Source of the DNA: Cellvibrio sp. KY-GH-1
Lineage (GTDB): Bacteria; Pseudomonadota; Gammaproteobacteria; Pseudomonadales; Cellvibrionaceae
Reading direction: 5' to 3'
DNA length: 64,000 nucleotides
Assembly: GCF_008806975.1 (NCBI RefSeq)
Contig: NZ_CP031728.1
Location: 4,051,501 to 4,115,500, forward strand
Shown here: one piece after another, positions 2-16,930 of the stretch
How positions within the stretch are numbered: position 1 is the first letter of the stretch
How the letters are laid out: each line of letters starts with the position of its first letter
Program-made: the position numbers and the translations under genes
The notes under the pieces: generated by a model
The model's input: the letters and a program-made list of their open reading frames with translations, nothing else
The model's database searches: none
What the model was told of the DNA's origin: nothing

Positions 2-1897
2 GCGCTTGATGAGCAGGCCAGCGCGCAGATTAACCGGGCAACATTTTTCCGTCAGGTGCTGCTTGGTTTGGTCGATGACGAATTGATTGATCTGGATGTA
101 ATCGCTGCTGAAAACCCCGGTACAACCACCAGCGATAGTATGGCGACGAGTGCAACCGATATTGATGCGCAGACGACGCCTGGTCGCGCACCGATGCACG
201 AAGCGCAGCATCAATCACCGCTGCACCAAACAGCCAACGCGATTAATTCTGTTGATCAACATGCGGCGCCAGCGCGTAGCCCACTACCCGCCGCACAAGC
301 GGGTCTCGATGCTGAACAGCAGACTCGTCAGCGACTCGCGCAATTGGTGCAGGAGCTGCGTGCGGGGCGAATAGATCCGTTTGGTTTGCGCATGAGCCTT
401 TATTACTGGCAGCGTCTGGTTGAACAATCGTTAACAGCAAAGGGTGGCGATTCATCGCATCACACTGAATTGCGTGAAGCCATAGGTCGCAGCGGCAGTG
501 ATGCGACTGACCCCAATTATTTCTACCAGCAAGTGATTCATGCGCTTCTGGCGGACTTGCCGCTGGATATGGAGGCGTTTGCGCGCGGCACAGCGGCAGA
601 TCATCACGCCCGGGAAACCGAGTCCGCCAAGCATCACGATGATGCAATCCTGCATGAACATAGTTCTGCACAAGCGACTAAAAAAATCGAACCAACGTTC
701 ACCTCTGTATCCATCGACAAACAGTCGTTGGAAGCCGTTGCACCTGGGGACAATGATTTTCACGATGCAGCGCAATCGTTCCCGGATGCAACGGGTACCG
801 ATACAGAGCCATCAGGAAATGGAGACATGTTGCGTACACCGGAACTCACGCTGGAGCAATTGCTGCGCGAACCTACAACACTAACCACGCAGCAGATGCA
901 GCAATTGCAGCAGCATGTCAATTTACTCCTGCAGCACTTTAGCCAGGCACAAGCACAGGAATGGCTACGCATTTTGCGCGAACCTGCCTGCGCGCAGCGA
1001 TTGATCCAGCAAGTGCCCGGCCATTTGTTGCATCAAATTGTGCAACGTTTACAGGCTGGGCCTTTTGCAGCCTTGGACCCAATTGTAAAACTCGCCAGTG
1101 AAGCACTTGCGTTACTGCTGCCGGGTGCCGATCCGCTGTTGTTGAAGCAGGCGCGCTGGGAGTTTGTATTTGGGCGTTTGTTCGGTTCAACCAACCCGAT
1201 GGACGCCGCGCAATTGCTGCAAGCTTGCTGCGAGCAATTAGCGCAAACTCTGGGTGTGAGTGATAGCCAACGGTTGTTGCAATTAGCAGAGCGTCGCCTC
1301 GCATTGTTAAAACCGGTAGCTGCCGCGCGCCCAAGCATGTCACTTAACGACGGTAATACGTCGGAAGAACCTGTGTTGAATTTTGAAGCCGGAGTGCACC
1401 TGAACAATGTGGGTATGGTGCTGGCGTCGCCCTTTTTGCCGCGTTTATTTTCCATGTTTAATTTATTGGAAGATGGAAAATTTATTCACCCGGGGGCGGC
1501 CGATCGCGCTGCGCATTTATTGCAGTACATGGTGACTGGCCAAAGCGAAACACCGGAATACGAATTAACCCTGAACAAAATATTGTGCGGCATTAGCACC
1601 AGCATGCCCATTAGCGCCGGCATTGAAGTGACTGAGCAGGAAAAACAGGTTATCGAGCAGATGCTGCAAAGCATGATCCAGCATTGGAAAGCCTTGGGTT
1701 CAACGTCAGTCGCAGGTTTGCGCGAAACCTTTATGCAGCGGCAGGGCTGGTTGATTCTGGATGAAGACTATTGGCGATTAAAAGTGCAAGAGCGCACCTT
1801 TGATATGTTGCTGGATCGCTTGCCCTGGAATATCTCCATGATCAAACACGCCTGGATGGACCGACCACTGCGCGTGTCATGGCGCGAACAATCCTGA
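2..1897 (+). CDS. Contractile injection system tape-measure-type protein (5' end outside window)
   Basis: The reading frame is open from base 2 with no stop, so the gene begins upstream and only its last 631 residues are seen. The C-terminal 170 residues carry the conserved block of the eCIS tape-measure family (CIS_TMP): a GMVLASPFLPRLF segment, a LLEDGKFI segment, LLQYMVTG, LTLNKILCG, then SVAGLRETFMQR and LLDRLPWNISMIK before a short C-terminus. The N-terminal half is low in conservation, Gln/His/Ala-rich and probably flexible. In this family the protein sets tube length and sits inside the sheath-tube complex. The next gene is the eCIS ATPase, 60 bases on, which fits the order in known eCIS loci. 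Recognition is by motif memory; no search was run. Confidence 0.85.
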   Translation, partial: ALDEQASAQINRATFFRQVLLGLVDDELIDLDVIAAENPGTTTSDSMATSATDIDAQTTPGRAPMHEAQHQSPLHQTANAINSVDQHAAPARSPLPAAQAGLDAEQQTRQRLAQLVQELRAGRIDPFGLRMSLYYWQRLVEQSLTAKGGDSSHHTELREAIGRSGSDATDPNYFYQQVIHALLADLPLDMEAFARGTAADHHARETESAKHHDDAILHEHSSAQATKKIEPTFTSVSIDKQSLEAVAPGDNDFHDAAQSFPDATGTDTEPSGNGDMLRTPELTLEQLLREPTTLTTQQMQQLQQHVNLLLQHFSQAQAQEWLRILREPACAQRLIQQVPGHLLHQIVQRLQAGPFAALDPIVKLASEALALLLPGADPLLLKQARWEFVFGRLFGSTNPMDAAQLLQACCEQLAQTLGVSDSQRLLQLAERRLALLKPVAAARPSMSLNDGNTSEEPVLNFEAGVHLNNVGMVLASPFLPRLFSMFNLLEDGKFIHPGAADRAAHLLQYMVTGQSETPEYELTLNKILCGISTSMPISAGIEVTEQEKQVIEQMLQSMIQHWKALGSTSVAGLRETFMQRQGWLILDEDYWRLKVQERTFDMLLDRLPWNISMIKHAWMDRPLRVSWREQS

Positions 1898-1957: not shown

Positions 1958-3319
1958 ATGGTTAATACGGTTAGTCAACAAAACGCAGCAACACTCGAAC
2001 GCGAACTCAATTGGTTTGCCGATGTGCTCAATTTGCGTTTTACCCATTATTTTGGTTCGCCCGAAATTCAGGCGGCCACCGCCGATATTCGCAGCATAGC
2101 AGCGCCGGATCTAGCGCAAGATAATTCCGAGTACGCGCAACTGGTGCGCCGCTATGAGATGGGGTTTGATGAACGTCTGGTATTTATTTTGTGTTTGATT
2201 CCCCATGTGCGCCCGCAAGCATTGGATATTTTTTTCACCCAAAGCCAAATCACTGGCCGCGCCTATACCGAATTTGGCGGTTGGCGCGGCAAAGCCCACA
2301 GCGGTTTTTTGCCCAGTGCGGAGACAGCGGTATTTTTACTGGCAGGGCAAGATCTGGAGCGGCGCTTTGCGGCGCTGCAATTGTTTGATGAGCATCATTA
2401 CTTTTTAAAACAAGGTTTGCTTAAGCTCGAGCACCAGGCAGCGGGCGAACCTTTTTTAAATGCGACTATTTCTGTGAGTGCAGAAACTTTGCATCGCTGC
2501 ACTCATGGTCAGGTACACAAACCCGATTACAGCATGGAATTTCCGGCGAAATTAATTACCAGCCCTTTGAGTTGGAATGATTTGGTGTTATCGCAAGATG
2601 TGATGGAAGAAATTGATCACCTGCACACCTGGCTCAAGCAGGGCAAGGAGTTGATCAACCGCTGGGAATTAACGCGTGCGGTAAAGCCTGGTTATCGCAG
2701 TTTATTTTTCGGGCCACCCGGTACCGGTAAAACACTCACTGCCACCTTGTTGGGCGCGAGTGTCGGTGTGGATGTGTATCGCATTGATCTATCGATGGTG
2801 GTTTCCAAATATATCGGCGAGACAGAAAAAAATCTCGCCGGCGTATTTGATCAGGCGCAAAACAAAAACTGGATTTTATTTTTCGACGAAGCCGATTCAC
2901 TGTTTGGCAAACGTACCCAAACCAGCAACTCCAATGACCGCCATGCCAACCAGGAAATCTCGTATTTGCTGCAACGCATAGAGGATTTCCCCGGGGTGGT
3001 GATTCTGGCCAGTAACATCAAAGCCAATATCGATGAAGCCTTTGCACGGCGCTTTCAATCGATTATTTATTTTCCGCTGCCCGATGATGTGGAGCGTTTG
3101 CGCTTGCTGAAAAATTTATTCCCCAACAGTAATTTCCTGGCTGACGACGTCAACCTGCAACAGTTGGCAGAGAAGTATGAATTATCCGGCGGGTCGCTGA
3201 CCAATGTCGCGCGTTACGCCGCTATACGCGCGACACGCCAGCAGCGCAACAAAATCCAGCATGCCGATTTGGTACAAGGCATTAACAAAGAACTTCTCAA
3301 GGAGGGGCGTACGCTCTAA
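1958..3319 (+). CDS. eCIS-associated AAA+ ATPase
   Basis: This 453-residue protein has an N-terminal helical region of about 220 residues followed by one AAA+ module. Walker A (GPPGTGKT) lies near residue 252, Walker B with a DEAD core near 310, and the arginine-finger segment FARRF near 362. A sensor-2-like helix (SGGSLTNVARYAAIRAT) follows. eCIS loci (Afp, PVC, MAC types) regularly encode such an ATPase next to the tape measure, with a suggested role in assembly, disassembly or cargo loading. The start ATG lies 60 bases after the previous stop, and the next gene begins within seven bases of its stop, so this is one operon. Confidence 0.9.
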   Translation: MVNTVSQQNAATLERELNWFADVLNLRFTHYFGSPEIQAATADIRSIAAPDLAQDNSEYAQLVRRYEMGFDERLVFILCLIPHVRPQALDIFFTQSQITGRAYTEFGGWRGKAHSGFLPSAETAVFLLAGQDLERRFAALQLFDEHHYFLKQGLLKLEHQAAGEPFLNATISVSAETLHRCTHGQVHKPDYSMEFPAKLITSPLSWNDLVLSQDVMEEIDHLHTWLKQGKELINRWELTRAVKPGYRSLFFGPPGTGKTLTATLLGASVGVDVYRIDLSMVVSKYIGETEKNLAGVFDQAQNKNWILFFDEADSLFGKRTQTSNSNDRHANQEISYLLQRIEDFPGVVILASNIKANIDEAFARRFQSIIYFPLPDDVERLRLLKNLFPNSNFLADDVNLQQLAEKYELSGGSLTNVARYAAIRATRQQRNKIQHADLVQGINKELLKEGRTL

Positions 3320-3325
3320 TTGACC

Positions 3326-6300
3326 ATGATGAAAGTTTCTTCATCCAAACGTATTTTTTCACTCAAACCTGGTTGGGGGCCGGTAGCGAAATTACTGGTT
3401 GTCGCCACGTTTTTGTTGGCAGCAGGCGTTGGTGCGCAGACCCCATCAGACGCTTCGGGAAGTTTGCCCGAAGGGGCGCGAGTTAATAAAGATAAATGCC
3501 TCGGCTATGAAATGGATTATAAAAAATATCCCAAGCCGGTGATCGCCAAAGTACAAGCGGATATGTACCAGCTCTACCATCAAGACGCGGATTGGAAGCA
3601 CGATGCTGGCTTAAAAGGCAAACCGCTAAACGATGGTATTCTCGGGCCAATTACCTGGTCATGGATGCAGCGCTTTTGTAAAAGTTTCGCGTTGGATATT
3701 AACACCGATGTAGTGTCCGCATTTCCTGCGCGCGCCGATGAAGTTGCCAAATTCTCGGCGACATTTAATGACGATGCTGCGACCTTAATTAGCAAACCCT
3801 TTGCGCAGTGGAGTGCGAGTCACCACAGCGCTTGTAATCTGGATGTGCAGGAAACTCTCGCCCACGGCAGTGATGAACAATTGCAAGCGTTGGTGCGCTG
3901 CTACCTGGAAGGTGAACAAAAAGCACCGGAAGTGCAACCCGCTGCCGCACCGGAACCCATCCAACCCTACACATTATATGTGTTGCGCGAGGATGATTTT
4001 GCGGCGATGGCAGAAGCATCGGCATCCGCGAAAATTACCGCCAAGGCGATTGAAACGCTAAAAGGCAAAGAATTCCCGAGTAGGGCGGATGCACAGGCGG
4101 AGATAGCCAAATTATTAGCCGGATTATCTGAAGCTGAAACCAAACAATTGGGTGACGCACTGCTGGCCCAATTCCAAACCAAAACCCGCTATGAGCTTAG
4201 CGATCAGGTATTGAATACGCTAAACCAACAGGGAATTAGCGATGCACTTTTTGCGGCGCTGCAAGCTTTACCGCAAAAAAGTTTTGCTGATTTGTCGGCA
4301 CTCACCAAAGCGATTAATGCCGCGGTTGCAAGCGTTAACAAAAATGCAAGCGCGCAAGTAAATACCCCCGCTCTCCAGGACGCGGCTTCAGCGAACAGCC
4401 AGGCGGTTTCCAGTGCGCCGGCGCCTGAGGTGGTTAACGCGGAACGGTTAGTGCTGCAAGTACAACTCCTGGCGCGCCAGGACTATTGGATTGCGGCGGA
4501 CATTAACGCAAGTCAATTGCCACTTGCACAAGGGCCAGTAGCGGCACCGGTGATTGAGTTATTGCAAGACCTGAAAGATAGGGAATACCCCGAGGGTCAG
4601 CTGCTGCATATGGCGGCTAAAAATAAAATCCTCAAAGCGGCGGATATTTGCAAGCAGGACAAATCCAATGCGATTGATAAGTCGCTCGCTAAACCTAACA
4701 TCGCGGAAATCAAACAGTATTTACAAAGTGTTATCCAATCCGGCGATCTCACCGATAAATACTGTACTGAAAATTTCTATCGCAAGTTAAATGATTACTA
4801 CGATAAAAACTTAAAGGCCACCATTGATAAACTCTATTCAGAACCTATGCCTGCCTATAAACACCAACCGATTAATTGGTCGGGGGCGAGTAAAGATTGC
4901 GGTTGTGTGCCGGATGAAATACAAACCATGGCCTATGGCATTTTCCCCTATTGGGAAACCACTGAAACGCCGCTGGAATTTGATTTCAGTACCTTCTCGC
5001 GCACCGCGTATTTTGGCTTGACCATTGGCAATAGTGGAAAGCTGCAACAAATAAACAGCCTGGGTGTGGATTTGCTGAAAGACAACAGCAGTTCGGCAAA
5101 GGCGTTTATTCGCGAAGCGCGTCGCTATGGCAGCAAAGTGGATTGGATTCTGGAAAAAGAATTTTCTGCCGCCCCGGAGTTGGAAAATGAGGCCGCCCTG
5201 CAAATATTTTTCAGCAACCTGCAAGCGGACATTATCAATTTACTGGGCACACCGCTCACCGATGCGGAATCGCGTTTGCGCCCGCTGCTCAGCCTGGGCC
5301 TCGCCAGCCAGCCACGCAATGGCGATGGCGTAACCTTCTATTTTAAAAATTACCCAAACACGGCGGCGGCCAAACAAAAATTTGACGATTTCTTTAATAG
5401 CCTGAAGGACAAGTTGCGCCAGCTGGATGACGAGCGCAATAGCTTTCACCCGGTGAAGGACATTACCTACGTCAACATCATGCTCACCAAATCGACATTT
5501 CTAAGCGAAGAAGGTACCTTCAATCGCGAGCATCTGGACACCCTGACTAACGTTGAGGAATGGGCAGAAAAGAATCTTTCTATTGTGGAAGTTCAGGACC
5601 GCGTGCGCACCATGCTGGTGTTAATTATGGAAGATCCCTACTACACCTCACTCGATGAAATCTATGCGGTTACCACCGGCATAGATCGCAATATTATTGC
5701 GCCGCTGATGTTTAGCGATTACTCATTAATGGACACCACCACCGAGCACAAGGGCCAAAGTGTGGATGAGCGTAAAAAGCGTCTGGCCTATGTGCATGAA
5801 AGTTTTGGTGCTGGTACTTTCTGGCCCATGGTGCAGTATAAAAATAGTAGCGATGGAAAAGACTACCGCGAATTTAACGATTATATCGGCAAGCATTTTT
5901 CGCCGGGTTACACCGAATCATTCTGGAACGAAACCCTCTGTGCCTATCGTTGGCAATTAATTTATGTGTTGAATTTGTGGCTGCTATTGGCGTTTATTTA
6001 TTTAATCACGTTCTTCTATTTGTTTCCGCACCGCTGTAAAGATTTACCCATGCTGTTGCGCTGGTTGCAACACCCACTCACGGTCGTTGGAATTATTCTA
6101 CCGCCGATCGTACTTTGGGGTTATCTACTGCTGATGGACTCGAGCTTTACCTTGTTGAATCTCTCCAGCCTTTTGTGTTTGCTGTTGTTGGGTTTAGCAA
6201 TTACAGCAGGTGTGGACGCGGTGAAAGCATTGCAACAGCAAAAACCCAATCGCAATTTGCTGCAATACCAAAAATTGGCGACTGCACCGACCAGCGAAAA

Positions 6301-6358
6301 TACAGAGGTTGTCGGTGAAGAAGTGGATGAAGAGATTTACGATAATGAGAGGACCTGA
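3326..6358 (+). CDS. Large periplasmic, membrane-anchored protein with PG-binding-like and GH18-like regions
   Basis: The protein is about 1010 residues. An N-terminal hydrophobic stretch ending near GVGAQ looks like a signal peptide. Residues about 55-130 resemble a peptidoglycan-binding repeat (regular VQ..Y spacing, then DGILGPITW..MQRF). Near residue 535 a segment beginning YGIFPYWE with DFSTFSRTAYFGLT resembles the first strands of a GH18 (chitinase-fold) barrel, but I cannot identify the DxxDxDxE catalytic motif, so activity is doubtful. Three hydrophobic helices follow near residues 875-970, then an acidic tail. It would be anchored in the inner membrane with a large periplasmic part. 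The start is uncertain: TTG at 3320, ATG at 3326 and ATG at 3329 are all possible. No firm family is known to me; the domain calls are inference from patterns. Confidence 0.6.
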   Translation: MMKVSSSKRIFSLKPGWGPVAKLLVVATFLLAAGVGAQTPSDASGSLPEGARVNKDKCLGYEMDYKKYPKPVIAKVQADMYQLYHQDADWKHDAGLKGKPLNDGILGPITWSWMQRFCKSFALDINTDVVSAFPARADEVAKFSATFNDDAATLISKPFAQWSASHHSACNLDVQETLAHGSDEQLQALVRCYLEGEQKAPEVQPAAAPEPIQPYTLYVLREDDFAAMAEASASAKITAKAIETLKGKEFPSRADAQAEIAKLLAGLSEAETKQLGDALLAQFQTKTRYELSDQVLNTLNQQGISDALFAALQALPQKSFADLSALTKAINAAVASVNKNASAQVNTPALQDAASANSQAVSSAPAPEVVNAERLVLQVQLLARQDYWIAADINASQLPLAQGPVAAPVIELLQDLKDREYPEGQLLHMAAKNKILKAADICKQDKSNAIDKSLAKPNIAEIKQYLQSVIQSGDLTDKYCTENFYRKLNDYYDKNLKATIDKLYSEPMPAYKHQPINWSGASKDCGCVPDEIQTMAYGIFPYWETTETPLEFDFSTFSRTAYFGLTIGNSGKLQQINSLGVDLLKDNSSSAKAFIREARRYGSKVDWILEKEFSAAPELENEAALQIFFSNLQADIINLLGTPLTDAESRLRPLLSLGLASQPRNGDGVTFYFKNYPNTAAAKQKFDDFFNSLKDKLRQLDDERNSFHPVKDITYVNIMLTKSTFLSEEGTFNREHLDTLTNVEEWAEKNLSIVEVQDRVRTMLVLIMEDPYYTSLDEIYAVTTGIDRNIIAPLMFSDYSLMDTTTEHKGQSVDERKKRLAYVHESFGAGTFWPMVQYKNSSDGKDYREFNDYIGKHFSPGYTESFWNETLCAYRWQLIYVLNLWLLLAFIYLITFFYLFPHRCKDLPMLLRWLQHPLTVVGIILPPIVLWGYLLLMDSSFTLLNLSSLLCLLLLGLAITAGVDAVKALQQQKPNRNLLQYQKLATAPTSENTEVVGEEVDEEIYDNERT

Positions 6359-6359
6359 C

Positions 6360-7544
6360 ATGGACTCGATAAGGAATAGCGCCGGTAATTATCGTTTAGC
6401 CCTGGCGTTTGCGTGTAGTGTTTTCCTGCAGGCCGGAAGCGCTTTGGCAAGTGAACTAACCTGTGCGGATAATTTTCCTGCTGCGACGAAAATCGTGAAG
6501 TTGGGAATGAGCACCGCACTTAGCGGGCCCAATCAGTATTTGGGTTTGTCTATGTCGCAAGGTGTCAGGGCGCGTATTGACGAAGCCAATTGCGCTGCGG
6601 AATGGCGCCGGCAAGGAATTCAATTTGAATTGATTGTGCTAGATGATAACTACGATCCACAGATTGCTGCGCGCAATACGCAAACATTAATTGAAGACCA
6701 CAAGGTGGTTGCTATTGTTGGCAACGTAGGAACGCCCACCGCCGAAAAAAGCTGGCAGATTGCCAATGAAAAACAAGTGGTGTTTTACGGCGCTTACACC
6801 GGGGCAAATCTATTGCGCCTCAACCCGCCCGCACCCTTCGTATTTAATTATCGCCCCAGTTATGACCAGGAGATGGAAGCTGTAGTGGCTGACATAGTCG
6901 CGCGCGGTATTCCGATCAAATCCATAGGATTATTTTTGCAAAATGATTCCTTCGGCAATGCCGGTCTCGCCGCTTTGCAAAAGGCATTGGAAAAAATTTG
7001 CGGCGACTGCCAGCAGGACATTTTCCAAATGCGCTATGAACGCAACAGTTTAAAAACCGGTGCTGCGGTAGAGGAATTTATCGCTGCTGAAGTTAAACCC
7101 CGCGCCGTAATTCTGGCCGGCTCACTGGAACCCTCTGCGGAGTTTATTCGCTTTGCCCAACGTCTATCGCCGGTAACACGCTTCTATTGCCTGTCATTTA
7201 TTAGCCCCAGTGCGCTGCAAAAGAAATTGGTTGTGGGACGCTATCAACTCACCTCATCACAGGTATTGCCTGAACAAAGCGCAATGACTGCAGGCTCAAC
7301 GAACGCGACAGGCGAAGCGTACACTAATGAGGTGTATCGCGAGGGCTATATGGAAACTCAATTGTTGCTGGATGCAGTAGCCGCGATACAAGGTTCGGTG
7401 ACGGGCGAAACCCTGCGCCAAAGCCTGGCGCGCCTGGAACGCCAGCTACCCGGAAATCCCGGCGATCAACAGATGATGAATAATGTCTGGTTGGCACAAG
7501 TGTACAACCACGAACAATCCGGAGTGGCCGCGAGTGTTAAATAA
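6360..7544 (+). CDS. ABC-type solute-binding protein (Leu/Ile/Val-binding-like) without a transporter
   Basis: This 394-residue protein is exported: the first 32 residues form a signal peptide ending near GSALA. The mature part follows the type I periplasmic-binding pattern of amino-acid and amide receptors (Peripla_BP_6): KLGMSTALSGPNQYLG at its start, a DDNYDP segment, AIVGNVGTPTAEK, and a second lobe with GLFLQNDSFGNAG. The start ATG at 6360 is chosen for the GAGAGG ribosome site and because it follows the previous stop by one base. No permease or ATPase gene is nearby. Instead the stop overlaps the start of a Cache-channel fusion, so the likely role is presenting a ligand to that sensor-channel or sensing on its own. 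The ligand is unknown. Confidence 0.85.
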   Translation: MDSIRNSAGNYRLALAFACSVFLQAGSALASELTCADNFPAATKIVKLGMSTALSGPNQYLGLSMSQGVRARIDEANCAAEWRRQGIQFELIVLDDNYDPQIAARNTQTLIEDHKVVAIVGNVGTPTAEKSWQIANEKQVVFYGAYTGANLLRLNPPAPFVFNYRPSYDQEMEAVVADIVARGIPIKSIGLFLQNDSFGNAGLAALQKALEKICGDCQQDIFQMRYERNSLKTGAAVEEFIAAEVKPRAVILAGSLEPSAEFIRFAQRLSPVTRFYCLSFISPSALQKKLVVGRYQLTSSQVLPEQSAMTAGSTNATGEAYTNEVYREGYMETQLLLDAVAAIQGSVTGETLRQSLARLERQLPGNPGDQQMMNNVWLAQVYNHEQSGVAASVK

Positions 7545-9675
7545 TAAATCACGCATTGCGTATTTCGGGTTGCTCCTGGTGACTGGTGCACTCTTGCTAT
7601 TTGCGCTCGCGCAAGCTGCTTTTTTGGTGAGGGATGATCAGCAACAGCAAACGGCATCACGCCAATGGGCGGAACAACAAACGCTCGCGCTGGCGAATGA
7701 TCTCGCACAAAAAATTCAGCGCATTTCGTCCATAGCGGATCAGTTGGCTGAACAAATTAGCGCGGCCAGTTGCAGCCCTTGCGATATCGAAAAAGCGCTG
7801 CGCGAACACTATTTGCGACACACGGATTTTACCGCCCTGGGCCTAGCCTTTGACGCGGAAACGTCAGGCACCGCGTTTCGCCTTTACGCACCTTTCATTC
7901 GCCAAAAAAACCAGGCAGCCGCCATTGAACGGCTAGATAGCTTCTATGACTATCTAGCAAATCAGGATGCAGCGGATGTGCGGGCTAATCCAGAAGCCTG
8001 GTATACCCACGCGCAGCAGCGTGAACGCCAATGGCTTGAACCTTTTTATGAAGCGGCGCTGGGTCAGTATGTTATTCGCTACACAGCGCCAATCTATAAC
8101 GCGCAGCAGCAAAAAATCGGTTTGGTATTTGTAGACACCGAGTTGGAGTGGCTACACGATCAAATAGAAAAATACGATATCAAAGATAACAACTATCTGA
8201 GCCTGGAATCGGCGCAAGGCAAAGAGCTATACCACAGCTTCAAAGGAATAGCTGAAATCATTCTGCAATTTTCCCAGCCCGCGCCTGTGCATACCAAAAC
8301 GCAAAGCACAGTGAATGTATTAACGGACGAGCCTGCCTGGCAACATAACTACCCTATTGCTGCGACCCAATGGCAACTGCACAGTGTTATTTCCAAATCC
8401 ACCATTGCCGATTTGGCGACTACAAAAGACAACGCGCAGGCGATGGCGAGTGTCGAACAACTGCATAAATTAACGACCAATGATCGTATTGATTGGGTGG
8501 TGTTGGTGGTGGTGTTGGCAATGTTGATATTTAGTTGTGTGCGTTTGCGACGCAAGCGCACCAGCAAAGTACAGCTGTGGGTTGATACGGCTATTTATAC
8601 AATTATTTTATTTTCCGGGGTGATTTCAATTTGGATATTGGAATACGGCACAGTTGCACCGGGCAACTCCATCATCCTTGCGAATCAAGCGATAATCCAA
8701 AAATTTGAACGCGATAACGCCCAACGCGCACTGATCGCGCACAACGACGCGCCTGTCTATGTGCCGGTGGGATTATTTATTCAATCGATTGAATTCCTTA
8801 GCGCGAGTAACGTGAATGTTACCGGCTATGTTTGGCATCGCTATCAGGAAGGCCAGGAATCCGACTATGAAGTTGGCACAGTCTTTCCTGAAGCCATTGA
8901 AACCAATATCAATTTGGCCTACGAAAAAACGGTCAATGGCGAAACCCTAAAAGGCTGGTACTTTGAAACCACGCTGCGTGAAAATTTCAATCCGGATCGC
9001 TTTCCATTGGATCGCCAATCGGTGTGGATCAGGCTTTGGCATGAAAAAATCGGCGACAATATCGTCCTGGTACCTGACCTGAAAGCCTACAACAGCTTAA
9101 ATACGCGTTCCTTGCCCGGCATTGAAAAAGATTTTGTGCTGGCTGGTTGGTCGCTGTTCCGCTCCTATTTTGAAGTGCGTGAAAACCAATACAACACGCG
9201 CCTGGGGATTGCGAGCAGCGCGCCCGGAGGCGTGGTGCCAGAGCTGTATTTCAATGTGGAAATCATGCGCAACTTTATCAATCCATTTCTGGCGCACCTG
9301 TTTCCGCTGTTTGTGGTTGTGCTTATGCTCTATGCCATCGTTATTACCATGTCGACCGATGAGGAGAAAAAAGATTTCCTCGGCTTTAATGCGGCGGGTG
9401 TGGTCGCCTCCTGCTCGGCACTCTTCTTCGTGGCATTAATTTCGCACGTACAATTGCGCAACGAGTTAGCGGCCAATTCAGTGGTGTATCTGGAGTATTT
9501 TTATCTAATCACTTATGTACTGATATTGTTGATCACATTGAACGCGGTGTTGTTGTCGCTGAAAGTCAAATTTGCATTTATCCAGTTCCATGACAATTTA
9601 TTGCCTAAACTGATTTACTGGCCGGCCATATCCGGCGCATTATTTATTTGCACCGTCTGGGCATTCCGTCATTAA
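7534..9675 (+). CDS. Cache domain fused to a pentameric ligand-gated ion channel (pLGIC)
   Basis: This 713-residue protein shows, in order: TM1 (about 7-32); a periplasmic double-Cache-like domain (about 40-315) with the pattern W.EPFYEAALGQYVIRYT, then APIYN, KIGLVFVDTELEWL; TM2 (about 320-338); TM3 (about 349-372); a pLGIC extracellular domain (about 375-580); and four terminal helices M1-M4 (about 582-606, 614-637, 650-677, 691-711). The channel assignment rests on VPVGLFIQSIEFLSASN followed by GYVWHRY (strands 1-2), the FPLDRQ signature at about 490 matching the FPFDxQ Pro-loop, a proline in M1, and an M2-M3 junction (QLRNEL..) followed by YLEYFY. The GTG start at 7534, after GGAG at 7521, overlaps the previous gene by 11 bases. 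An upstream start at 7483 is possible but less likely. Confidence 0.8.
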   Translation: MLNNKSRIAYFGLLLVTGALLLFALAQAAFLVRDDQQQQTASRQWAEQQTLALANDLAQKIQRISSIADQLAEQISAASCSPCDIEKALREHYLRHTDFTALGLAFDAETSGTAFRLYAPFIRQKNQAAAIERLDSFYDYLANQDAADVRANPEAWYTHAQQRERQWLEPFYEAALGQYVIRYTAPIYNAQQQKIGLVFVDTELEWLHDQIEKYDIKDNNYLSLESAQGKELYHSFKGIAEIILQFSQPAPVHTKTQSTVNVLTDEPAWQHNYPIAATQWQLHSVISKSTIADLATTKDNAQAMASVEQLHKLTTNDRIDWVVLVVVLAMLIFSCVRLRRKRTSKVQLWVDTAIYTIILFSGVISIWILEYGTVAPGNSIILANQAIIQKFERDNAQRALIAHNDAPVYVPVGLFIQSIEFLSASNVNVTGYVWHRYQEGQESDYEVGTVFPEAIETNINLAYEKTVNGETLKGWYFETTLRENFNPDRFPLDRQSVWIRLWHEKIGDNIVLVPDLKAYNSLNTRSLPGIEKDFVLAGWSLFRSYFEVRENQYNTRLGIASSAPGGVVPELYFNVEIMRNFINPFLAHLFPLFVVVLMLYAIVITMSTDEEKKDFLGFNAAGVVASCSALFFVALISHVQLRNELAANSVVYLEYFYLITYVLILLITLNAVLLSLKVKFAFIQFHDNLLPKLIYWPAISGALFICTVWAFRH

Positions 9676-9732: not shown

Positions 9733-9770
9733 ATCACCAGGAAAACCCCGGGAGAACACCATGGCCTTCA
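9733..9770 (+). repeat. Duplicated leader, copy 1 (ribosome site plus first codons of cargo gene 1)
   Basis: These 38 bases match 10642-10679 at 36 positions, beginning ATCACCAGG and ending in the shared start ATGGCCTTCA. The block includes the ribosome site GGGAG and the first codons, so the two cargo genes share both leader and N-terminus. This points to a recent duplication or conversion. Confidence 0.9.
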
Positions 9771-10567
9771 GCATTCGCCAGGCTGCCAGCGCAAAAGAGT
9801 CCGGGCAGGACGTGGCGGCCAAACCCGGGCCTCCTTTATTTAACGATCAGCGCGCTTCAACCGGTGTGCAATTAAAACAACAAGAGTTGTTACGCACCGC
9901 GCAGGTTCCCGCTCAACTGACGGTGATTCCAGGAACAGTAGCCTACGTACCAAGCAGCGGGCGTGCAGGTACATCGAAATTGGCATATATCTGTGATGGT
10001 TATGATTACGGGAAACAGAATGAACCTGCGGATAGTGCAACTTCGACTATGCCGATGAGAGATGAGATAGCCTCCACCTATATAAAAACACATCCCAATG
10101 ATCCTTTTGCCATGCACTTGGTAAATGGTCGACTCGGTGGTAGCGGGGCTGATACCGAAAATCTTGCCTGGGGACCCAGTGAGTTAAACAGAAAACATTA
10201 CAACAACTGGGAAAATGACCGGCAGATGGAGGTACAAAGTCGGAGCGGGGAAAGAGTGGATGTTAGCGTACAAGCAACTTATCACTCAAATGACACGAAC
10301 ACCCCCGCAGGCTATTACCTCAAACGCCTGGATTGTACCCACGAAATAGACGGCGATTCAAAAACGGTAGGAATAGAGATTGGCGAACCGGTAGAAGATG
10401 ACGAGGAATGGAAACCGAATAAGAAGAAAAAGCGCAAACACGCGTTACCCGATACTACCAAACCGTCAAAAAAGCACAGCGGGATAAAAAAGAAAAACTC
10501 GTCGAAAGAAAAAAAGGAAAAGAAAAAAGAAGACGAAAAGAAAAAGAAGAGATTTTATGGGCGTTAG
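9761..10567 (+). CDS. Probable eCIS cargo: nuclease-like effector with lysine-rich tail
   Basis: This 268-residue protein has no signal peptide. Its first 50 residues (MAFSIRQAAS, then LFNDQRASTGVQLKQQ) closely resemble the start of the DUF4157 protein downstream and recall the FxDNRP..QR motif at the start of many eCIS-linked proteins. The middle contains AMHLVNGRLGGSG followed by ENLAWGPSELNRKHYNNWE, which resembles the His and Asn core of DNA/RNA non-specific endonucleases of the Endonuclease_NS_2 kind. I read it as a candidate nuclease; catalysis is not proven. The last 50 residues are extremely basic (KKKKRK, then many Lys/Glu), like a nucleic-acid-binding or nuclear-localisation tail. 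It follows the channel gene by 85 bases. Confidence 0.65.
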   Translation: MAFSIRQAASAKESGQDVAAKPGPPLFNDQRASTGVQLKQQELLRTAQVPAQLTVIPGTVAYVPSSGRAGTSKLAYICDGYDYGKQNEPADSATSTMPMRDEIASTYIKTHPNDPFAMHLVNGRLGGSGADTENLAWGPSELNRKHYNNWENDRQMEVQSRSGERVDVSVQATYHSNDTNTPAGYYLKRLDCTHEIDGDSKTVGIEIGEPVEDDEEWKPNKKKKRKHALPDTTKPSKKHSGIKKKNSSKEKKEKKKEDEKKKKRFYGR

Positions 10568-10641
10568 CAAAGCCGATATATTTTGAATGAGCAAGTTTAT
10601 ATAGAAACGTGCCTGTTGCACGAGTTTCTAACATTAACCAG

Positions 10642-10679
10642 ATCACCAGGGAAATCCCGGGAGAACACCATGGCCTTCA
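10642..10679 (+). repeat. Duplicated leader, copy 2
   Basis: Second copy of the block at 9733-9770, differing at two of 38 positions. It carries the GGGAG ribosome site and the ATG at 10670 with the same first codons. This conservation is the main reason for starting the DUF4157 gene at 10670 rather than at an in-frame ATG 87 bases upstream. Confidence 0.9.
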
Positions 10680-11839
10680 CCACTCGTCAGGCTGCCAGCG
10701 AGCAAAAATCTGCCCAGGAAGCGGCGGCAAAACCCAGCGCACAATTGTTTAGCGATCAGCGTGCTTCCACCAGCGTGCAGTTGAAACAACAGCAATTAAT
10801 GCAGACTGCACAGCTTGCGGCAGAAGAGGAAGAGCCGTTGCAAGGCAAATTTGAAACGGCGCAGCTTGCCGCAGAAGAGGAAGAGCCTCTGCAAGGAAAA
10901 TTCGCCACGGCGCAATTAGCCGGGATGGAAGAAGAAGTACCTATGCAAGGAAAATTTGCAACTGCACAACTGGCCGCCCTGGAAGAAGAGCCGCTACAGG
11001 GAAAATTTGTGGCGCAACGCGCAGAGGAAGAGGAACCATTGCAGGGAAAGTTTGAATCGCCTGCACCAGCGCAGCGCGAACAAAAACCGAATAACACCGG
11101 TATGCCGGACAATTTGAAATCCGGTATCGAAAATCTATCCGGCTATTCCATGGACGATGTAAAAGTCCATTACAACTCAGACAAGCCGGCACAATTAAAT
11201 GCCCACGCCTATGCACAGGGAACGGACATTCACGTCGCTCCGGGACAAGAGCAACATCTACCCCACGAAGCCTGGCATGTTGTGCAACAAAAACAGGGCC
11301 GCGTACAAGCCACTATGCAAATGAAAGCCGGTGTACCGGTAAACGACGATGCAGGCTTGGAAAATGAAGCGGATGTGATGGGGGCAAAGGCTGTTGAGCA
11401 GCAAACGTTAGCAGTCCAGAGTGCGCCCTTTTCGCTAAAAGCGCTTTCCAAAAGCGGCCCGAAGCAATTGATGTCCGTTAGAACCGTGAACAAAGTGCCT
11501 ACTGTCGAGTTATCTAAGCACTTGGTCCCCCTGGCGAATCAAGAAGCATGGGCAACGAGTAAAGCAAAACCAAAAACAACGTTCATTTCCGACAGCGCCG
11601 AGGTTGTTGCAGCGGTGAACACAAGTACACATGATTTCACTGCTGCTACCGCAGTAATGGAATATAAAGAAATTAAACCGACAATAACGACGACCCAATA
11701 TGAAAAAACTCCTGCGGGTGACGGTCCAGGTAAGCCGGTAACGCGTACGTTGGATGCGGCTCCTCGAGAATGTGTAGTGGGTGTTACCAAAAAAGCCGGC
11801 GTAGATGAAATTGTAATTAATCACTTAGCGAACGTGTAA
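10670..11839 (+). CDS. DUF4157 (eCIS core domain) protein, metallopeptidase-like, with EEEPLQGKF repeats
   Basis: This 389-residue protein begins with the shared N-terminal module (MAFTTRQAAS, LFSDQRASTSVQLKQQQ). Five tandem repeats of about 17 residues follow at about 45-130, each ending in a form of EEEPLQGKF. The DUF4157 domain spans about 145-235: GMPDNLKSGIENLSGYSMDD, VKVHYNSDKPAQLNA, AYAQGTDIHVAPGQ, and the zinc-protease-like motif HEAWH at residues 199-203. DUF4157 proteins are the most widespread eCIS-linked accessory and cargo family. The C-terminal 150 residues are unrelated to anything I recognise and may be the toxic part. The repeats are typical of the family and may act as a spacer or loading segment. 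Confidence 0.88.
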   Translation: MAFTTRQAASEQKSAQEAAAKPSAQLFSDQRASTSVQLKQQQLMQTAQLAAEEEEPLQGKFETAQLAAEEEEPLQGKFATAQLAGMEEEVPMQGKFATAQLAALEEEPLQGKFVAQRAEEEEPLQGKFESPAPAQREQKPNNTGMPDNLKSGIENLSGYSMDDVKVHYNSDKPAQLNAHAYAQGTDIHVAPGQEQHLPHEAWHVVQQKQGRVQATMQMKAGVPVNDDAGLENEADVMGAKAVEQQTLAVQSAPFSLKALSKSGPKQLMSVRTVNKVPTVELSKHLVPLANQEAWATSKAKPKTTFISDSAEVVAAVNTSTHDFTAATAVMEYKEIKPTITTTQYEKTPAGDGPGKPVTRTLDAAPRECVVGVTKKAGVDEIVINHLANV

Positions 11840-11867: not shown

Positions 11868-12590
11868 ATGACTTACATCAGAAAAAATATAGCGACGAAT
11901 AATGATACTAATAGTAGTAAACCCGTTGCCCAATCCAACGCGGGGTTTGCCGATAGACGTCAGTCTACTGAGGAGCAAATTGCTCAGCGGCAAATGATTC
12001 AAAATTCGAATGTTCATCAACGAATAGTAAGTAAATTAGGTTCAACTACGCCAACGGTACAACTGGTACCGCAGTATAGTTCTGGATTGACCAGATCAGT
12101 TACCGTTACAGGAAACTCAAAAACGAAAAGTTTTGAAGAATGCACTTACAATTCTGTGGAGTATTCGGCCGGCGATAATCTACTGACTACCGGCACCGGT
12201 ACGGAAACGCCGGCCAACTGGGCTACATGGTTAGTCAACAAAAAAGGCGGGAATAATGCCTCGCAACTGCATGTAGTTAATCGACGTTGGGGTGGATTAG
12301 GTGGCCGTAATGATAAGAATATAGTTCCTGGTTCGCCTGCCGAGAATAGTCATCACCTACATGAAGCCGAAAAGGAGTTTGATAAATGCTTCAGCGCTGG
12401 AAAAGCTATCAATAACTGTAAATATGAATGTACGGTTGCGCCAAAATATGGACAAGCGGTTAATGTAACCGGTGGCCCGGTGGATTATGGCGATCCAACC
12501 ATTACTGTGAGCATCACTGATAACGGCGTGAAAAAGGCATACCCTGTGACCGATGGTGCAGACGGTCTCACGTTTAAAGAAGGCACCTAA
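11868..12590 (+). CDS. Probable eCIS cargo: second nuclease-like effector
   Basis: This 240-residue protein has no signal peptide. It has a diverged form of the shared N-terminus (FADRRQSTEEQIAQRQMIQ), matching the FxDxR.ST..Q..Q pattern of the two genes upstream. The middle reads LHVVNRRWGGLGG, then NDKNIVPGSPAENSHHLHEAE, parallel to HLVNGRLGGSG..ENL in the first cargo protein, so both likely share a His/Asn nuclease-like core. Only 28 bases separate it from the DUF4157 gene. The ribosome site is weak (AAGCGAG). The first and third cargo genes thus flank the DUF4157 gene as distant paralogues. Confidence 0.6.
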   Translation: MTYIRKNIATNNDTNSSKPVAQSNAGFADRRQSTEEQIAQRQMIQNSNVHQRIVSKLGSTTPTVQLVPQYSSGLTRSVTVTGNSKTKSFEECTYNSVEYSAGDNLLTTGTGTETPANWATWLVNKKGGNNASQLHVVNRRWGGLGGRNDKNIVPGSPAENSHHLHEAEKEFDKCFSAGKAINNCKYECTVAPKYGQAVNVTGGPVDYGDPTITVSITDNGVKKAYPVTDGADGLTFKEGT

Positions 12591-13709: not shown

Positions 13710-14303
13710 TTATAACTGCTTATTCCAAACATCCAAATCCACACTCCCAGTAACGCCATCCACGTTTCCACTTTGTGAATACTGCCAAAAGTTCCATGCA
13801 GTCCAACCGAATGGAATTTTTGGTGTAGTCACACCATATTCTGCAACCCACAGTGGGTATTTGGAAAAATCTGAATTAATAGTTTGATTCCAGAATGAAG
13901 GGCCGGTGTAAATCATGGGCGTGCGGCCCAGTGCTTTTTCCACCGTATCCAACCAGATTTGCAAATTTGCGGCGACGCTGTTGCTGCCGTAATTACCTTT
14001 AAAAATTTCTATATCCACAACGGGTGCTAAATCATTCGCATCTAGCGAACCCACCGCAGCAACAAAATTATTCGCTTGGGTAACAGGGTCATCATTGGTT
14101 TCATAAAAATGGTAAGCACCGCGCAAAACCCCGGCGGCTTGCATAGCTTGCCAATTCGTGTGGAACTGCGGGTCAGTGTAAGTATTACCATCGGTAGCCT
14201 TCGCATACGCAAACGCAATTCCCGCGGCCTTAACTTTTTTCCAATCCACCGTACCCTGGTAATGGGAAACGTCTATGCCTTGCAGTTGGTTGGTGGTAGT
14301 CAT
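13710..14303 (-). CDS. GH25 lysozyme (N-acetylmuramidase)
   Basis: This 197-residue protein is a single GH25 domain of normal length. It starts with GIDVSHYQG (Asp11) and carries the catalytic pair in APVVDIEIF (Asp97, Glu99), plus RGAYHFYE, PMIYTGPSFW, LWVAEYG and a final FWQYSQSG..DLDVWN. These enzymes cleave the glycan strand of peptidoglycan. There is no signal peptide, so export would need another route such as the neighbouring injection system, holin action or cell lysis. Lysozymes are common in tail-like and eCIS loci, where they may free particles from the producer or help puncture targets. It is convergent to the cargo operon, with its stop 88 bases from that of the membrane protein. 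Confidence 0.92.
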   Translation of the reverse strand: MTTTNQLQGIDVSHYQGTVDWKKVKAAGIAFAYAKATDGNTYTDPQFHTNWQAMQAAGVLRGAYHFYETNDDPVTQANNFVAAVGSLDANDLAPVVDIEIFKGNYGSNSVAANLQIWLDTVEKALGRTPMIYTGPSFWNQTINSDFSKYPLWVAEYGVTTPKIPFGWTAWNFWQYSQSGNVDGVTGSVDLDVWNKQL

Positions 14304-15770: not shown

Positions 15771-16064
15771 ATGAGCAAGAAACCAACCCCAAAAGAGAAT
15801 AAGAAGTATACAGCCGAGTTCAAAAGTGAGGCCATTAAACTGGCCGAACGATTGAGCGTAGCGGAAGCCGCCGAAAAACTGGGCATATATGCCAGTCAAA
15901 TTTACAGTTGGCGTAGCGCACTCAACAATAGCCGTACTGATGTTGAAAGAGAATCGCTCCTCGCCGCTGAAAATGCACGCCTCAAGCGTCAGCTCGCCGA
16001 GCAAGCAGAGGAGCTTGAAATCCTAAAAAAGGCGGCTACCTACTTCGCGAAGCATCAAAAATAA
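15771..16064 (+). CDS. IS3-family transposase OrfA
   Basis: This 97-residue protein carries a helix-turn-helix region (YTAEFKSEAIKLAERLSV, then AAEKLGIYASQIYSW) followed by a leucine-zipper-like helix (ENARLKRQLAEQAEELEIL). OrfA binds the terminal repeats and regulates transposition. Near its end the heptamer A AAA AAG (16025-16031) lies in the correct phase for -1 frameshifting into OrfB. From 16031 the -1 frame is open into orfB, so a fused OrfAB transposase can be made. Confidence 0.93.
   Translation: MSKKPTPKENKKYTAEFKSEAIKLAERLSVAEAAEKLGIYASQIYSWRSALNNSRTDVERESLLAAENARLKRQLAEQAEELEILKKAATYFAKHQK
16025..16031 (+). other. -1 ribosomal frameshift heptamer A AAA AAG
   Basis: In the orfA frame the codons are CTA AAA AAG, giving the A_AAA_AAG arrangement used by IS3-family elements. 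The -1 frame entered here stays open through 16079 to the orfB stop, so slippage would produce the OrfAB fusion transposase. Confidence 0.8.
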
Positions 16065-16078
16065 AACGCTACGAATTT

Positions 16079-16930
16079 ATGCTGACAAATAGCGCGCTAT
16101 ATTCAATCGCGATGATGGCGCGCGTTCTGTTGGTTTCGCGAAGTGGGTATTACAGCTGGCTTGATAATCGTGAAATGGTTAGTTGGCGCATGCAGCAAAG
16201 AGAAGCGATTGATGCGTTGGTAAAGGCAGCATTTGAGGCTGGAAAAGGCCGGTATGGCGCGGATCGGATTTTTTATGATTTGGCGGAGCAAGATAATCCG
16301 CTCGACATAAAAACCATTCGGAAAAGCCTGAAACGGCAGGGGTTAATTGCAAAAGCGGCCAAGCTGTTCAAGGTGACTACGGACAGCAATCATACACTAC
16401 CTGTTGCGCCCAACCTGTTGGCTAGAGATTTTTCTGCGCAACAACCTAATGAAAAATGGGTGACCGATATTACTTATATTCAAACTACAGAAGGTTGGTT
16501 GTATCTGGCCGTGATGATTGATTTATATTCTCGAAAAGTTGTTGGTTGGTCGATGAGCAAACATATTGATGCGCAATTGGTTTGTGATTCATTGATGATG
16601 GCGTTGTGGCGACGAAAATTCCCAAAAAGCGTTATTGTTCACAGTGACCGTGGCAGCCAATATGTATCGCATGCGTTTAGGGATTTACTGGAAAAATATT
16701 CGCTAATACAGAGTATGAGTCGCAAGGGTGATTGCTGGGACAATGCGTGTGCGGAAAGCTTCTTTCATTCACTTAAGGTTGAGCTGGTTCACGGCGAGCC
16801 ATTGCTAGATGGAAAGCACACGCGCGAGTCTATTTTTGAATATATCGAAGTGGATTACAATCGCTACCGCCGTCACAGCGCTATTGGCTTTGTTAGCCCC
16901 GAGCGCTTTGAGGCAAAAAATGTATGTTAG
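16079..16930 (+). CDS. IS3-family transposase OrfB (DDE integrase catalytic domain)
   Basis: This 283-residue protein is the catalytic part. An HTH_21-like region (KGRYGADRIFYDLAE) precedes the rve core. The three catalytic acids are in WVTDITYI (Asp), VHSDRGSQY (Asp) and the final block containing CAESFFHSLKVELVHG (Glu), with the closing YNRYRRHSAIGFVSPERFE typical of the family. It is probably expressed mainly as the OrfAB fusion through the frameshift at 16025-16031. No disruption is seen. Confidence 0.95.
   Translation: MLTNSALYSIAMMARVLLVSRSGYYSWLDNREMVSWRMQQREAIDALVKAAFEAGKGRYGADRIFYDLAEQDNPLDIKTIRKSLKRQGLIAKAAKLFKVTTDSNHTLPVAPNLLARDFSAQQPNEKWVTDITYIQTTEGWLYLAVMIDLYSRKVVGWSMSKHIDAQLVCDSLMMALWRRKFPKSVIVHSDRGSQYVSHAFRDLLEKYSLIQSMSRKGDCWDNACAESFFHSLKVELVHGEPLLDGKHTRESIFEYIEVDYNRYRRHSAIGFVSPERFEAKNVC

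What the first reader, a model, noticed from the sequence alone, without database searches (positions are those of the whole stretch)
7534..9675. Cache domain fused to a pentameric ligand-gated ion channel
The sequence shows an N-terminal Cache-like sensor between two helices, a third helix, then a pLGIC extracellular domain with FPLDRQ (Pro-loop) and four closing helices. Known prokaryotic channels such as GLIC and ELIC lack a sensor domain; some bacterial pLGICs with extra N-terminal domains are known, but a double-Cache unit with its own membrane helices would make a seven-helix subunit and a pentamer with five sensors. It may be a new class of bacterial chemoreceptor channel.
Basis: partly seen in the sequence, partly recalled or inferred. 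Interest (0 to 1): 0.88.

Follow-up and report, generated by a model that had tools for sequence, protein, structure and literature searches.

The report
Cache-fused ion channel in injection operon
A bacterial relative of nerve-cell neurotransmitter receptors, carrying an extra chemical sensor, sits inside the operon of a phage-tail-like injection machine, and related channel genes recur beside such machines in other microbes.

Summary

Cache-pLGIC fusions were published in 2004, so the fusion is not new. Among 370 class-mates the family is in 10, the eCIS tape measure in 12, both in 8 (p=2.7e-12); in 7 of the 8 a channel gene lies 3.4-6.7 kb downstream. Canonical pLGICs show no such link (1 of 10, p=0.28). 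The link is not obligatory: 57 of 78 carrier genomes lack the tape measure.

Best reading: a ligand-gated channel that informs the eCIS-producing cell about outside chemistry. Linkage is shown, fold predicted; conduction, ligand and effect on the eCIS are inferred.

The parts
7534..9675 (+). Cache-pLGIC gene (713 aa)
   Evidence: ORF; SD-like CGGAG 7520-7524 and 11-nt overlap with the SBP stop; family of 259 homologues
7561..7623 (+). TM1 (residues about 10-30), start of the long first helix 7-77
   Evidence: hydropathy; model
7651..8424 (+). periplasmic dCache sensor (residues about 40-297)
8485..8550 (+). TM2 (318-339), followed by a basic hairpin RRKR, predicted cytosolic (net positive in 62 of 77 homologues)
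8566..8643 (+). TM3 (345-370), leads back to the periplasm; the first helix of several Cache-less short forms
8740..9273 (+). pLGIC extracellular beta-sandwich (403-580)
9001..9018 (+). Pro-loop FPLDRQ (490-495)
   Evidence: P491 77/77, D493 76/77
9277..9348 (+). M1 (582-605) with invariant P591; invariant pre-M1 R579 just before
9391..9468 (+). M2 (620-645), putative pore helix; invariant R642 at its outer end
9487..9558 (+). M3 (652-675)
9598..9666 (+). M4 (689-711)
6360..7544 (+). periplasmic substrate-binding protein, LIV type (Peripla_BP_6), signal peptide by eye; such a gene is adjacent to the channel in 23 of 79 related loci
   Evidence: Pfam 1.3e-36; PDB 4kv7 1.7e-52; ATG one base after the previous stop
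3320..6358 (+). 1012-aa protein: GH18-like barrel (533-874) without the full catalytic motif, C-terminal TM helices
   Evidence: homologues in the eCIS loci
1958..3319 (+). eCIS-type AAA+ ATPase
   Evidence: Pfam AAA 4e-29
56..1897 (+). C-terminal part of the eCIS tape measure (whole open frame 1627 aa, starts upstream of the window)
   Evidence: CIS_TMP 1.8e-76
10583..11839 (+). eCIS_core (DUF4157) protein
   Evidence: Pfam 6e-9
9761..10567 (+). DNA/RNA non-specific endonuclease-like protein, candidate eCIS cargo (inference)
   Evidence: Endonuclea_NS_2 8.5e-9

Best explanation
The gene encodes a subunit of a (homo- or hetero-)pentameric channel of the pLGIC superfamily. Its N-terminal half is a periplasmic dCache sensor held by its own two membrane helices; a third helix leads back to the periplasm, where the channel's ligand-binding sandwich and the M1-M4 pore domain follow. 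The coupled substrate-binding protein probably presents a small molecule to the Cache and/or channel domain, and binding shifts the gate. Because the gene lies in the eCIS operon and channels of this family recur at that place, the most likely job is to report extracellular chemistry to the eCIS-producing cell as an ion flux or potential change that controls eCIS production, membrane docking, release or firing. Shown: sequence, homology, operon position, co-occurrence. Predicted: fold and topology. Inferred: pentamer, conduction, ligand, and the step of the eCIS cycle controlled.
For: Fold and homology. All 77 channel halves hit the HMM of 50 canonical-type channels, 0 of 770 decoys; reverse 48 of 50, 0 of 1000 decoys; HHalign E 6e-16 over 256 columns (42 of the 51 canonical-type proteins found carry PF02931). 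Operon: no gap between AAA and the 1012-aa gene, 1 nt before the SBP, 11-nt overlap SBP/channel; Pvc16_N, sheath, tube and baseplate genes upstream in the same genome. Co-occurrence: family in 10 of 370, CIS_TMP in 12 of 370, both in 8, p=2.7e-12, without the own genome 6.7e-11; by taxonomic family about 1e-6 to 4e-6 (number of families assumed). In 7 of the 8 a channel match (Cache form in 6, short form alone in G298) lies 3.4-6.7 kb from the tape-measure match, same strand, downstream. Control: canonical PF02931 channels 1 of 10, p=0.28. Several placements in the tree: the eCIS label needs 6 changes, 5 forced by starred branches. Two eCIS operons hold three channel genes each: short, Cache and canonical-like (L068; L128). 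SBP next to the channel in 23 of 79 loci, upstream, downstream or divergent. CIS_TMP in 21 of 78 genomes that carry the family; a survey by other criteria found eCIS in 1.9% of bacteria (PMC8213781, heading seen).
Against: The eCIS link is not obligatory. Only 6 of 79 genome-contig loci show my eCIS markers within the held flanks, up to 10 kb; 57 of 78 carrier genomes lack CIS_TMP. In the 21 carriers that have it, a channel gene lies within 7 kb in 4 (G060, G070, G076, G087; short form in G070 and G087), on the same contig 22-25 kb off in 2 (G052, G085), and on other contigs in 15. Of 37 relatives 9 have CIS_TMP and only 2 the full channel; five such eCIS loci lack it in the 8-15 kb examined. 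In G398 channel and tape measure are about 186 kb apart; G226 and G243 carry the family without CIS_TMP. Genomes of one family are not independent. No conserved charged ring lines the inner end of M2 (D/E in 11 of 77, K/R in 8 of 77 at residues 619-628), so conduction and selectivity cannot be predicted. No pentamer was modelled.
Confidence: 0.5

Rival explanations
1. A general chemosensory channel (SBP + Cache-pLGIC cassette) that only happens to lie in the eCIS island of two Cellvibrio genomes; it serves chemotaxis or nutrient sensing and has nothing to do with the eCIS.
For: The window protein and L003 nest inside a clade of SBP-linked members without eCIS markers in their held flanks, for instance in Nitrosomonas, Nitrospira and Shewanella; five other Cellvibrio eCIS loci lack it; in 15 of 21 carriers with CIS_TMP the channel is on another contig. 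Tasneem et al. proposed chemotaxis for prokaryotic pLGICs.
Against: It sits at the place where other eCIS operons carry different members of the family; co-occurrence p=2.7e-12, canonical control p=0.28; tight gene packing with the eCIS genes.
Confidence: 0.25
2. A pLGIC-fold protein without ion flux: a ligand-binding membrane scaffold or anchor that docks the eCIS or its GH18-like partner at the inner membrane and signals by conformation only.
For: No conserved charge ring by M2 and an M1-M2 segment with mixed charges; a neighbour with C-terminal TM helices and a degenerate GH18-like barrel is found in all 12 eCIS loci mapped.
Against: M2 is strongly conserved (S628 63, A629 73, L630 76, F631 72, F632 75, H638 73, R642 77 of 77), as is the Pro-loop/pre-M1 coupling set, which is what a gated pore would need.
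Confidence: 0.17
3. An eCIS cargo or an immunity protein: it lies in the 3' part of the operon, where eCIS toxin genes tend to lie.
For: Position just before nuclease-like and eCIS_core genes; PMC8213781 says toxin genes tend to lie at the 3' end (passage).
Against: Seven-helix membrane protein coupled to a secreted binding protein; a widespread family mostly without eCIS markers in the flanks; no eCIS_core domain in the Pfam column of the 120 listed homologues.
Confidence: 0.05

Closest known systems
Prokaryotic ART-LGICs with MCP-N + Cache domains (Methanosarcina, Cytophaga, 'Microbulbifer degradans' = Saccharophagus degradans), Tasneem et al. 2004, PMC549065
   Same: Cache-type sensor N-terminal to a pLGIC core; the paper also reports PBP-I fusions and operons with stand-alone PBP-II or Cache genes; sporadic phyletic spread
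   Different: The parts read describe a signal peptide + LBD + 4 TM with domains in between, no extra membrane helices, and no contractile injection system. Whether those proteins belong to this very family was not tested; likely at least for Methanosarcina, since Methanosarcinaceae genomes hold this family (L025, L031, L044).
GLIC / ELIC and canonical PF02931 pLGICs, including the 332-aa one of this genome (L091)
   Different: Extra Cache unit, three extra helices, 12-15% identity to the GLIC and ELIC rows listed, below Pfam detection; canonical ones do not track eCIS (1 of 10)
DeCLIC (PMC9897478, passages read)
   Same: pLGIC with a two-lobed periplasmic N-terminal domain
   Different: DeCLIC's lobes are jelly-rolls on the ECD periphery, in a subunit described with four TM helices; here a dCache with two TM helices of its own and a third linking helix
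dCache chemoreceptors (McpU, PacA, TlpQ, PctD, MkcA)
   Different: Output is a pLGIC module, not an MCP or kinase; the amino-acid-motif Arg position is Glu154 here
LuxP-LuxQ (recalled, no call)
   Same: A periplasmic binding protein working on a Cache-like two-lobe receptor domain
   Different: LuxQ is a histidine kinase; here the output would be a channel
Extracellular contractile injection systems surveyed in PMC8213781
   Same: Same kinds of operon components (sheath, tube, baseplate, AAA, DUF4157)
   Different: The main text has no occurrence of Cache, periplasmic binding or sensor; its Pfam-based enrichment would miss this family's channel half, which Pfam does not detect

Membership tests
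pLGIC (Pro-loop/Cys-loop receptor) superfamily | ECD beta-sandwich followed by a four-helix TMD | tested here: met
pLGIC (Pro-loop/Cys-loop receptor) superfamily | [F/Y]PxD Pro-loop with invariant Pro (PMC4795631) | tested here: met
   F/Y490 77/77, P491 77/77, D493 76/77
pLGIC (Pro-loop/Cys-loop receptor) superfamily | Pre-M1 Arg (salt-bridge partner of the Asp) and M1 Pro | tested here: met
   R579 77/77, P591 77/77
pLGIC (Pro-loop/Cys-loop receptor) superfamily | Sequence homology to accepted members | tested here: met
   HHalign E 6e-16, 256 columns; canonical-type HMM hits 77 of 77, 0 of 770 decoys; reverse 48 of 50, 0 of 1000
   No hit at E<=10 for residues 333-713
pLGIC (Pro-loop/Cys-loop receptor) superfamily | Basic residue at M2 0' (79% of members in PMC4795631, so not universal) | tested here: inconclusive
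   K/R at 619-628 in 8 of 77; register of M2 not fixed without coordinates
pLGIC (Pro-loop/Cys-loop receptor) superfamily | Pentamer and ligand-gated ion conduction | not testable with these tools
   Only monomer prediction available
dCache_1 sensor domain | Two-lobe periplasmic Cache between two TM helices | tested here: met
dCache_1AA (amino-acid-binding) subfamily | Arg two residues before the WY pair (R126 of PctA; PMC10104139) | tested here: not met
   Position 154 is Glu in the window protein, by my reading of the alignments (motif passages)
dCache_1AM (amine-binding) subfamily | Aromatic pair, final Asp and upstream charged pair | tested here: inconclusive
   W156 76/77, Y/F157 77/77, D201 present here but in 36 of 77; upstream charged pair not aligned
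eCIS operon component (this lineage) | Recurrent co-location with the eCIS tape measure | tested here: met
   8 of 10 carriers among 370 have CIS_TMP, 7 of those 8 within 7 kb; control family 1 of 10. In the other sample 4 of 21 within 7 kb.
eCIS operon component (this lineage) | Effect on eCIS assembly, release or firing | not testable with these tools
   Needs deletion in the host

The most novel reading that the evidence does not exclude
A lineage of contractile injection systems carries its own neurotransmitter-receptor-type channels, homomeric or built from up to three subunit types (Cache, short, canonical-like) encoded in the eCIS operon, so that an extracellular small molecule (here brought by a dedicated binding protein) opens an ion channel that triggers release or firing of the particles. 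That would be, to my knowledge, the first ligand-gated ion channel controlling a protein-injection machine.
Probability: 0.35. Interest if true: 0.92.

Novelty: new variant of a known kind. Interest (0 to 1): 0.76.

Why it matters
What prokaryotic pLGICs do in their own cells is, to my knowledge, unknown, and how eCIS-producing cells decide when to make or release particles is largely open. A recurrent physical link between the two gives pLGICs a concrete, testable role and gives eCIS a candidate environmental sensor. It also shows that Pfam-based surveys of eCIS neighbourhoods would miss such accessory genes, and it supplies Cache-containing, five-helix (Cache-less) and multi-gene natural variants for structural work on gating.

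Tried and rejected

Rows dropped before counts: A1 used 77 of the 121 sequences at hand (mostly representatives at 80% identity, 600-800 aa); one search used 50 of 51 canonical-type proteins (over 290 aa), of which some lack a PF02931 mark (42 of 51 have it); the tree left out L105 (same genome as L003) and rows with under 250 model positions; 48 of its 90 rows carry no label and were not counted in the label changes. My ORF caller called no family gene in L039, L071 and L075 of the 79 loci, nor in L133 (G243), probably because an overlapping frame won. L121-L125 are 5 of the 7 eCIS-positive relatives without the full channel; G002 and G008 were not inspected.
Full report

HOMOLOGY. This genome also has a canonical PF02931 pLGIC (332 aa, 36.1 bits, cut-off 26). 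A search with it gave 51 proteins, 42 of them marked PF02931. An HMM of 50 of these hits 77 of 77 channel halves of the Cache family and 0 of 770 shuffled decoys; the reverse gives 48 of 50 and 0 of 1000; HHalign gives E 6e-16 over 256 columns. The superfamily's most conserved residues (from PMC4795631, abstract, passages) are present: [F/Y]PxD (77, 77 and 76 of 77 for F/Y, P and D), pre-M1 Arg 77/77, M1 Pro 77/77; M2 ends in an invariant Arg642. So it is a divergent pLGIC, below Pfam's sight.

ANATOMY. Predicted topology: TM1, periplasmic Cache, TM2, a short basic hairpin (net positive in 62 of 77), TM3, periplasmic pLGIC sandwich, M1-M4. Several Cache-less short forms (about 380-400 aa) start directly with the equivalent of TM3, so TM3 belongs to the channel module and acts there like a signal anchor (inference). 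Seven helices per long subunit are therefore well supported by prediction; the pentamer is assumed from the family.

IS THE LINK REAL? In 370 genomes of the class (drawn by the tool, completeness 90 or more), the channel family (profile A2, E<=1e-20) is in 10 and CIS_TMP (E<=1e-10) in 12; 8 have both; one-sided Fisher p=2.7e-12, 6.7e-11 without the own genome. Counting taxonomic families (5 with both, 2 with the channel only, 4 with CIS_TMP only; total assumed 150-200) p is about 1e-6 to 4e-6. In 7 of the 8 a channel match lies 3.4-6.7 kb from the tape-measure match, same strand, downstream. In G298 the near gene is the short form and its Cache form is on another contig; in G398 the distance is about 186 kb. 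The four CIS_TMP genomes without the channel have a compact tape measure (open frame 493-535 aa, one nearly full match); the eight with it have long frames (764-1627 aa), with a split match in seven and a partial one in G225. That looks like an eCIS lineage marker, but rests on 12 genomes. Control: canonical PF02931 channels in the same 370 genomes: 10, one with CIS_TMP, p=0.28.

HOW OFTEN NOT. Among 37 relatives, 9 have CIS_TMP and 2 the full channel (most other A1 matches there are Cache-only); in five eCIS loci of the others (L121-L125, 8-15 kb examined) eCIS_core follows the 1012-aa gene. Of 79 loci from one-per-species genomes (best 80 of 168 matches kept), 6 show my eCIS markers in the held flanks and 23 a binding-protein gene, one of these both. 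CIS_TMP occurs in 21 of 78 carrier genomes: within 7 kb of a channel gene in 4, on the same contig 22-25 kb off in 2, on other contigs in 15 (many are draft assemblies). The family is thus wider than eCIS.

SEVERAL CHANNELS PER OPERON AND SEVERAL PLACEMENTS. L068 and L128 each hold three channel genes near the tape measure: short, Cache and canonical-like (the last hit by the canonical-type HMM at 8e-47 and 3e-46). L126 holds Cache + canonical-like; in L130 the canonical-like gene is split over two ORFs. In a 90-row tree eCIS-linked members fall in a Cache clade (L068, L126-L128, L130; 100/100), in the short-form clade, among Methanosarcinales/Methanosarcinaceae (L029, L044, beside eCIS_core genes) and, as the window + L003 pair, inside a clade of mostly binding-protein-linked members (98/80, 100/99). 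The label needs 6 changes, 5 forced by well supported branches, against 12.0 in shuffles. The window's cassette thus looks like an SBP + Cache-pLGIC unit placed where other eCIS operons carry other channels of the family; I read this as repeated recruitment, though losses could account for part of it.

MECHANISM. Most likely the binding protein or a free ligand acts on the Cache and/or channel domain, gating an ion flux that informs the eCIS-producing cell. A binding protein docking on a two-lobe Cache-like domain has a precedent in LuxP-LuxQ (recalled). Which eCIS step is controlled is unknown; I favour production, release or firing. Ligand: the amino-acid motif Arg position is Glu154, the aromatic pair is kept, the final Asp is present here but in 36 of 77 of the family (motif from PMC10104139, passages read): not a typical amino-acid Cache; amines neither shown nor excluded. 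Selectivity cannot be read from M2.

PRIOR ART. Tasneem et al. (PMC549065; passages, sections 6 and 17) described MCP-N + Cache + pLGIC fusions, PBP-I fusions, and operons with PBP-II or Cache genes. The fusion is therefore known; whether their proteins belong to this very family was not tested. DeCLIC's N-terminal lobes are jelly-rolls (PMC9897478, passages). The eCIS survey PMC8213781 has no occurrence of Cache, periplasmic binding or sensor in its main text (section 10 read); searches found no relevant paper joining the topics. Verdict: new variant of a known kind, with an unexpected and statistically strong genomic home.

Noticed in passing
window 3320-6358; homologues in L068, L105, L121-L130, L134: A protein with C-terminal TM helices and a degenerate GH18-like barrel follows the eCIS AAA ATPase in all 12 eCIS loci mapped (and in L068), with or without the channel; no Pfam hit over cut-off in the two scanned (structure).
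   Followed up: partly
L068, L128, L126, L130: Two or three different pLGIC genes (Cache form, short form, canonical-like about 366-369 aa) close together in eCIS operons, which might make heteromers; the canonical-like gene of L130 is split over two ORFs.
   Followed up: partly
L058, L059, L062, L064: Tandem pairs of Cache-pLGIC genes in filamentous cyanobacteria, without my eCIS markers in the flanks.
   Followed up: no
L126:6746-8209 (-), L128:7603-9021 (+): TPR proteins with about three hydropathy TM segments between the pseudo-GH18 gene and the channel gene.
   Followed up: no
window 10823-11009: Tandem repeat, period 51-54 bp, 3.1-3.5 copies (73-77% match), coding a repeated acidic 17-18 aa unit (EEEPLQGKF..) before the eCIS_core domain.
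   Followed up: no
window 9761-10567, 10583-11839 and 11868-12590: Two nuclease-like proteins (Endonuclea_NS_2 8.5e-9, and a weak 0.098 below cut-off) flank the eCIS_core gene; by eye all three share a similar N-terminal stretch (..F.DqRaST..Q..Q..), perhaps a loading signal (sequences).
   Followed up: no
window 13710-14303 (-): GH25 muramidase (6.3e-55) just beyond the eCIS cargo region, opposite strand; could serve lysis or delivery.
   Followed up: no
window 15771-16930: Transposase gene pair with an rve integrase core (IS3-type by recall) downstream of the eCIS region, a sign of possible island mobility.
   Followed up: no
L091:1216-2211: The genome's canonical pLGIC (332 aa) follows another gene 3 nt apart (CpaE/ATPase-like by eye, not searched); the G017 relative (L102) has the same pair.
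   Followed up: no
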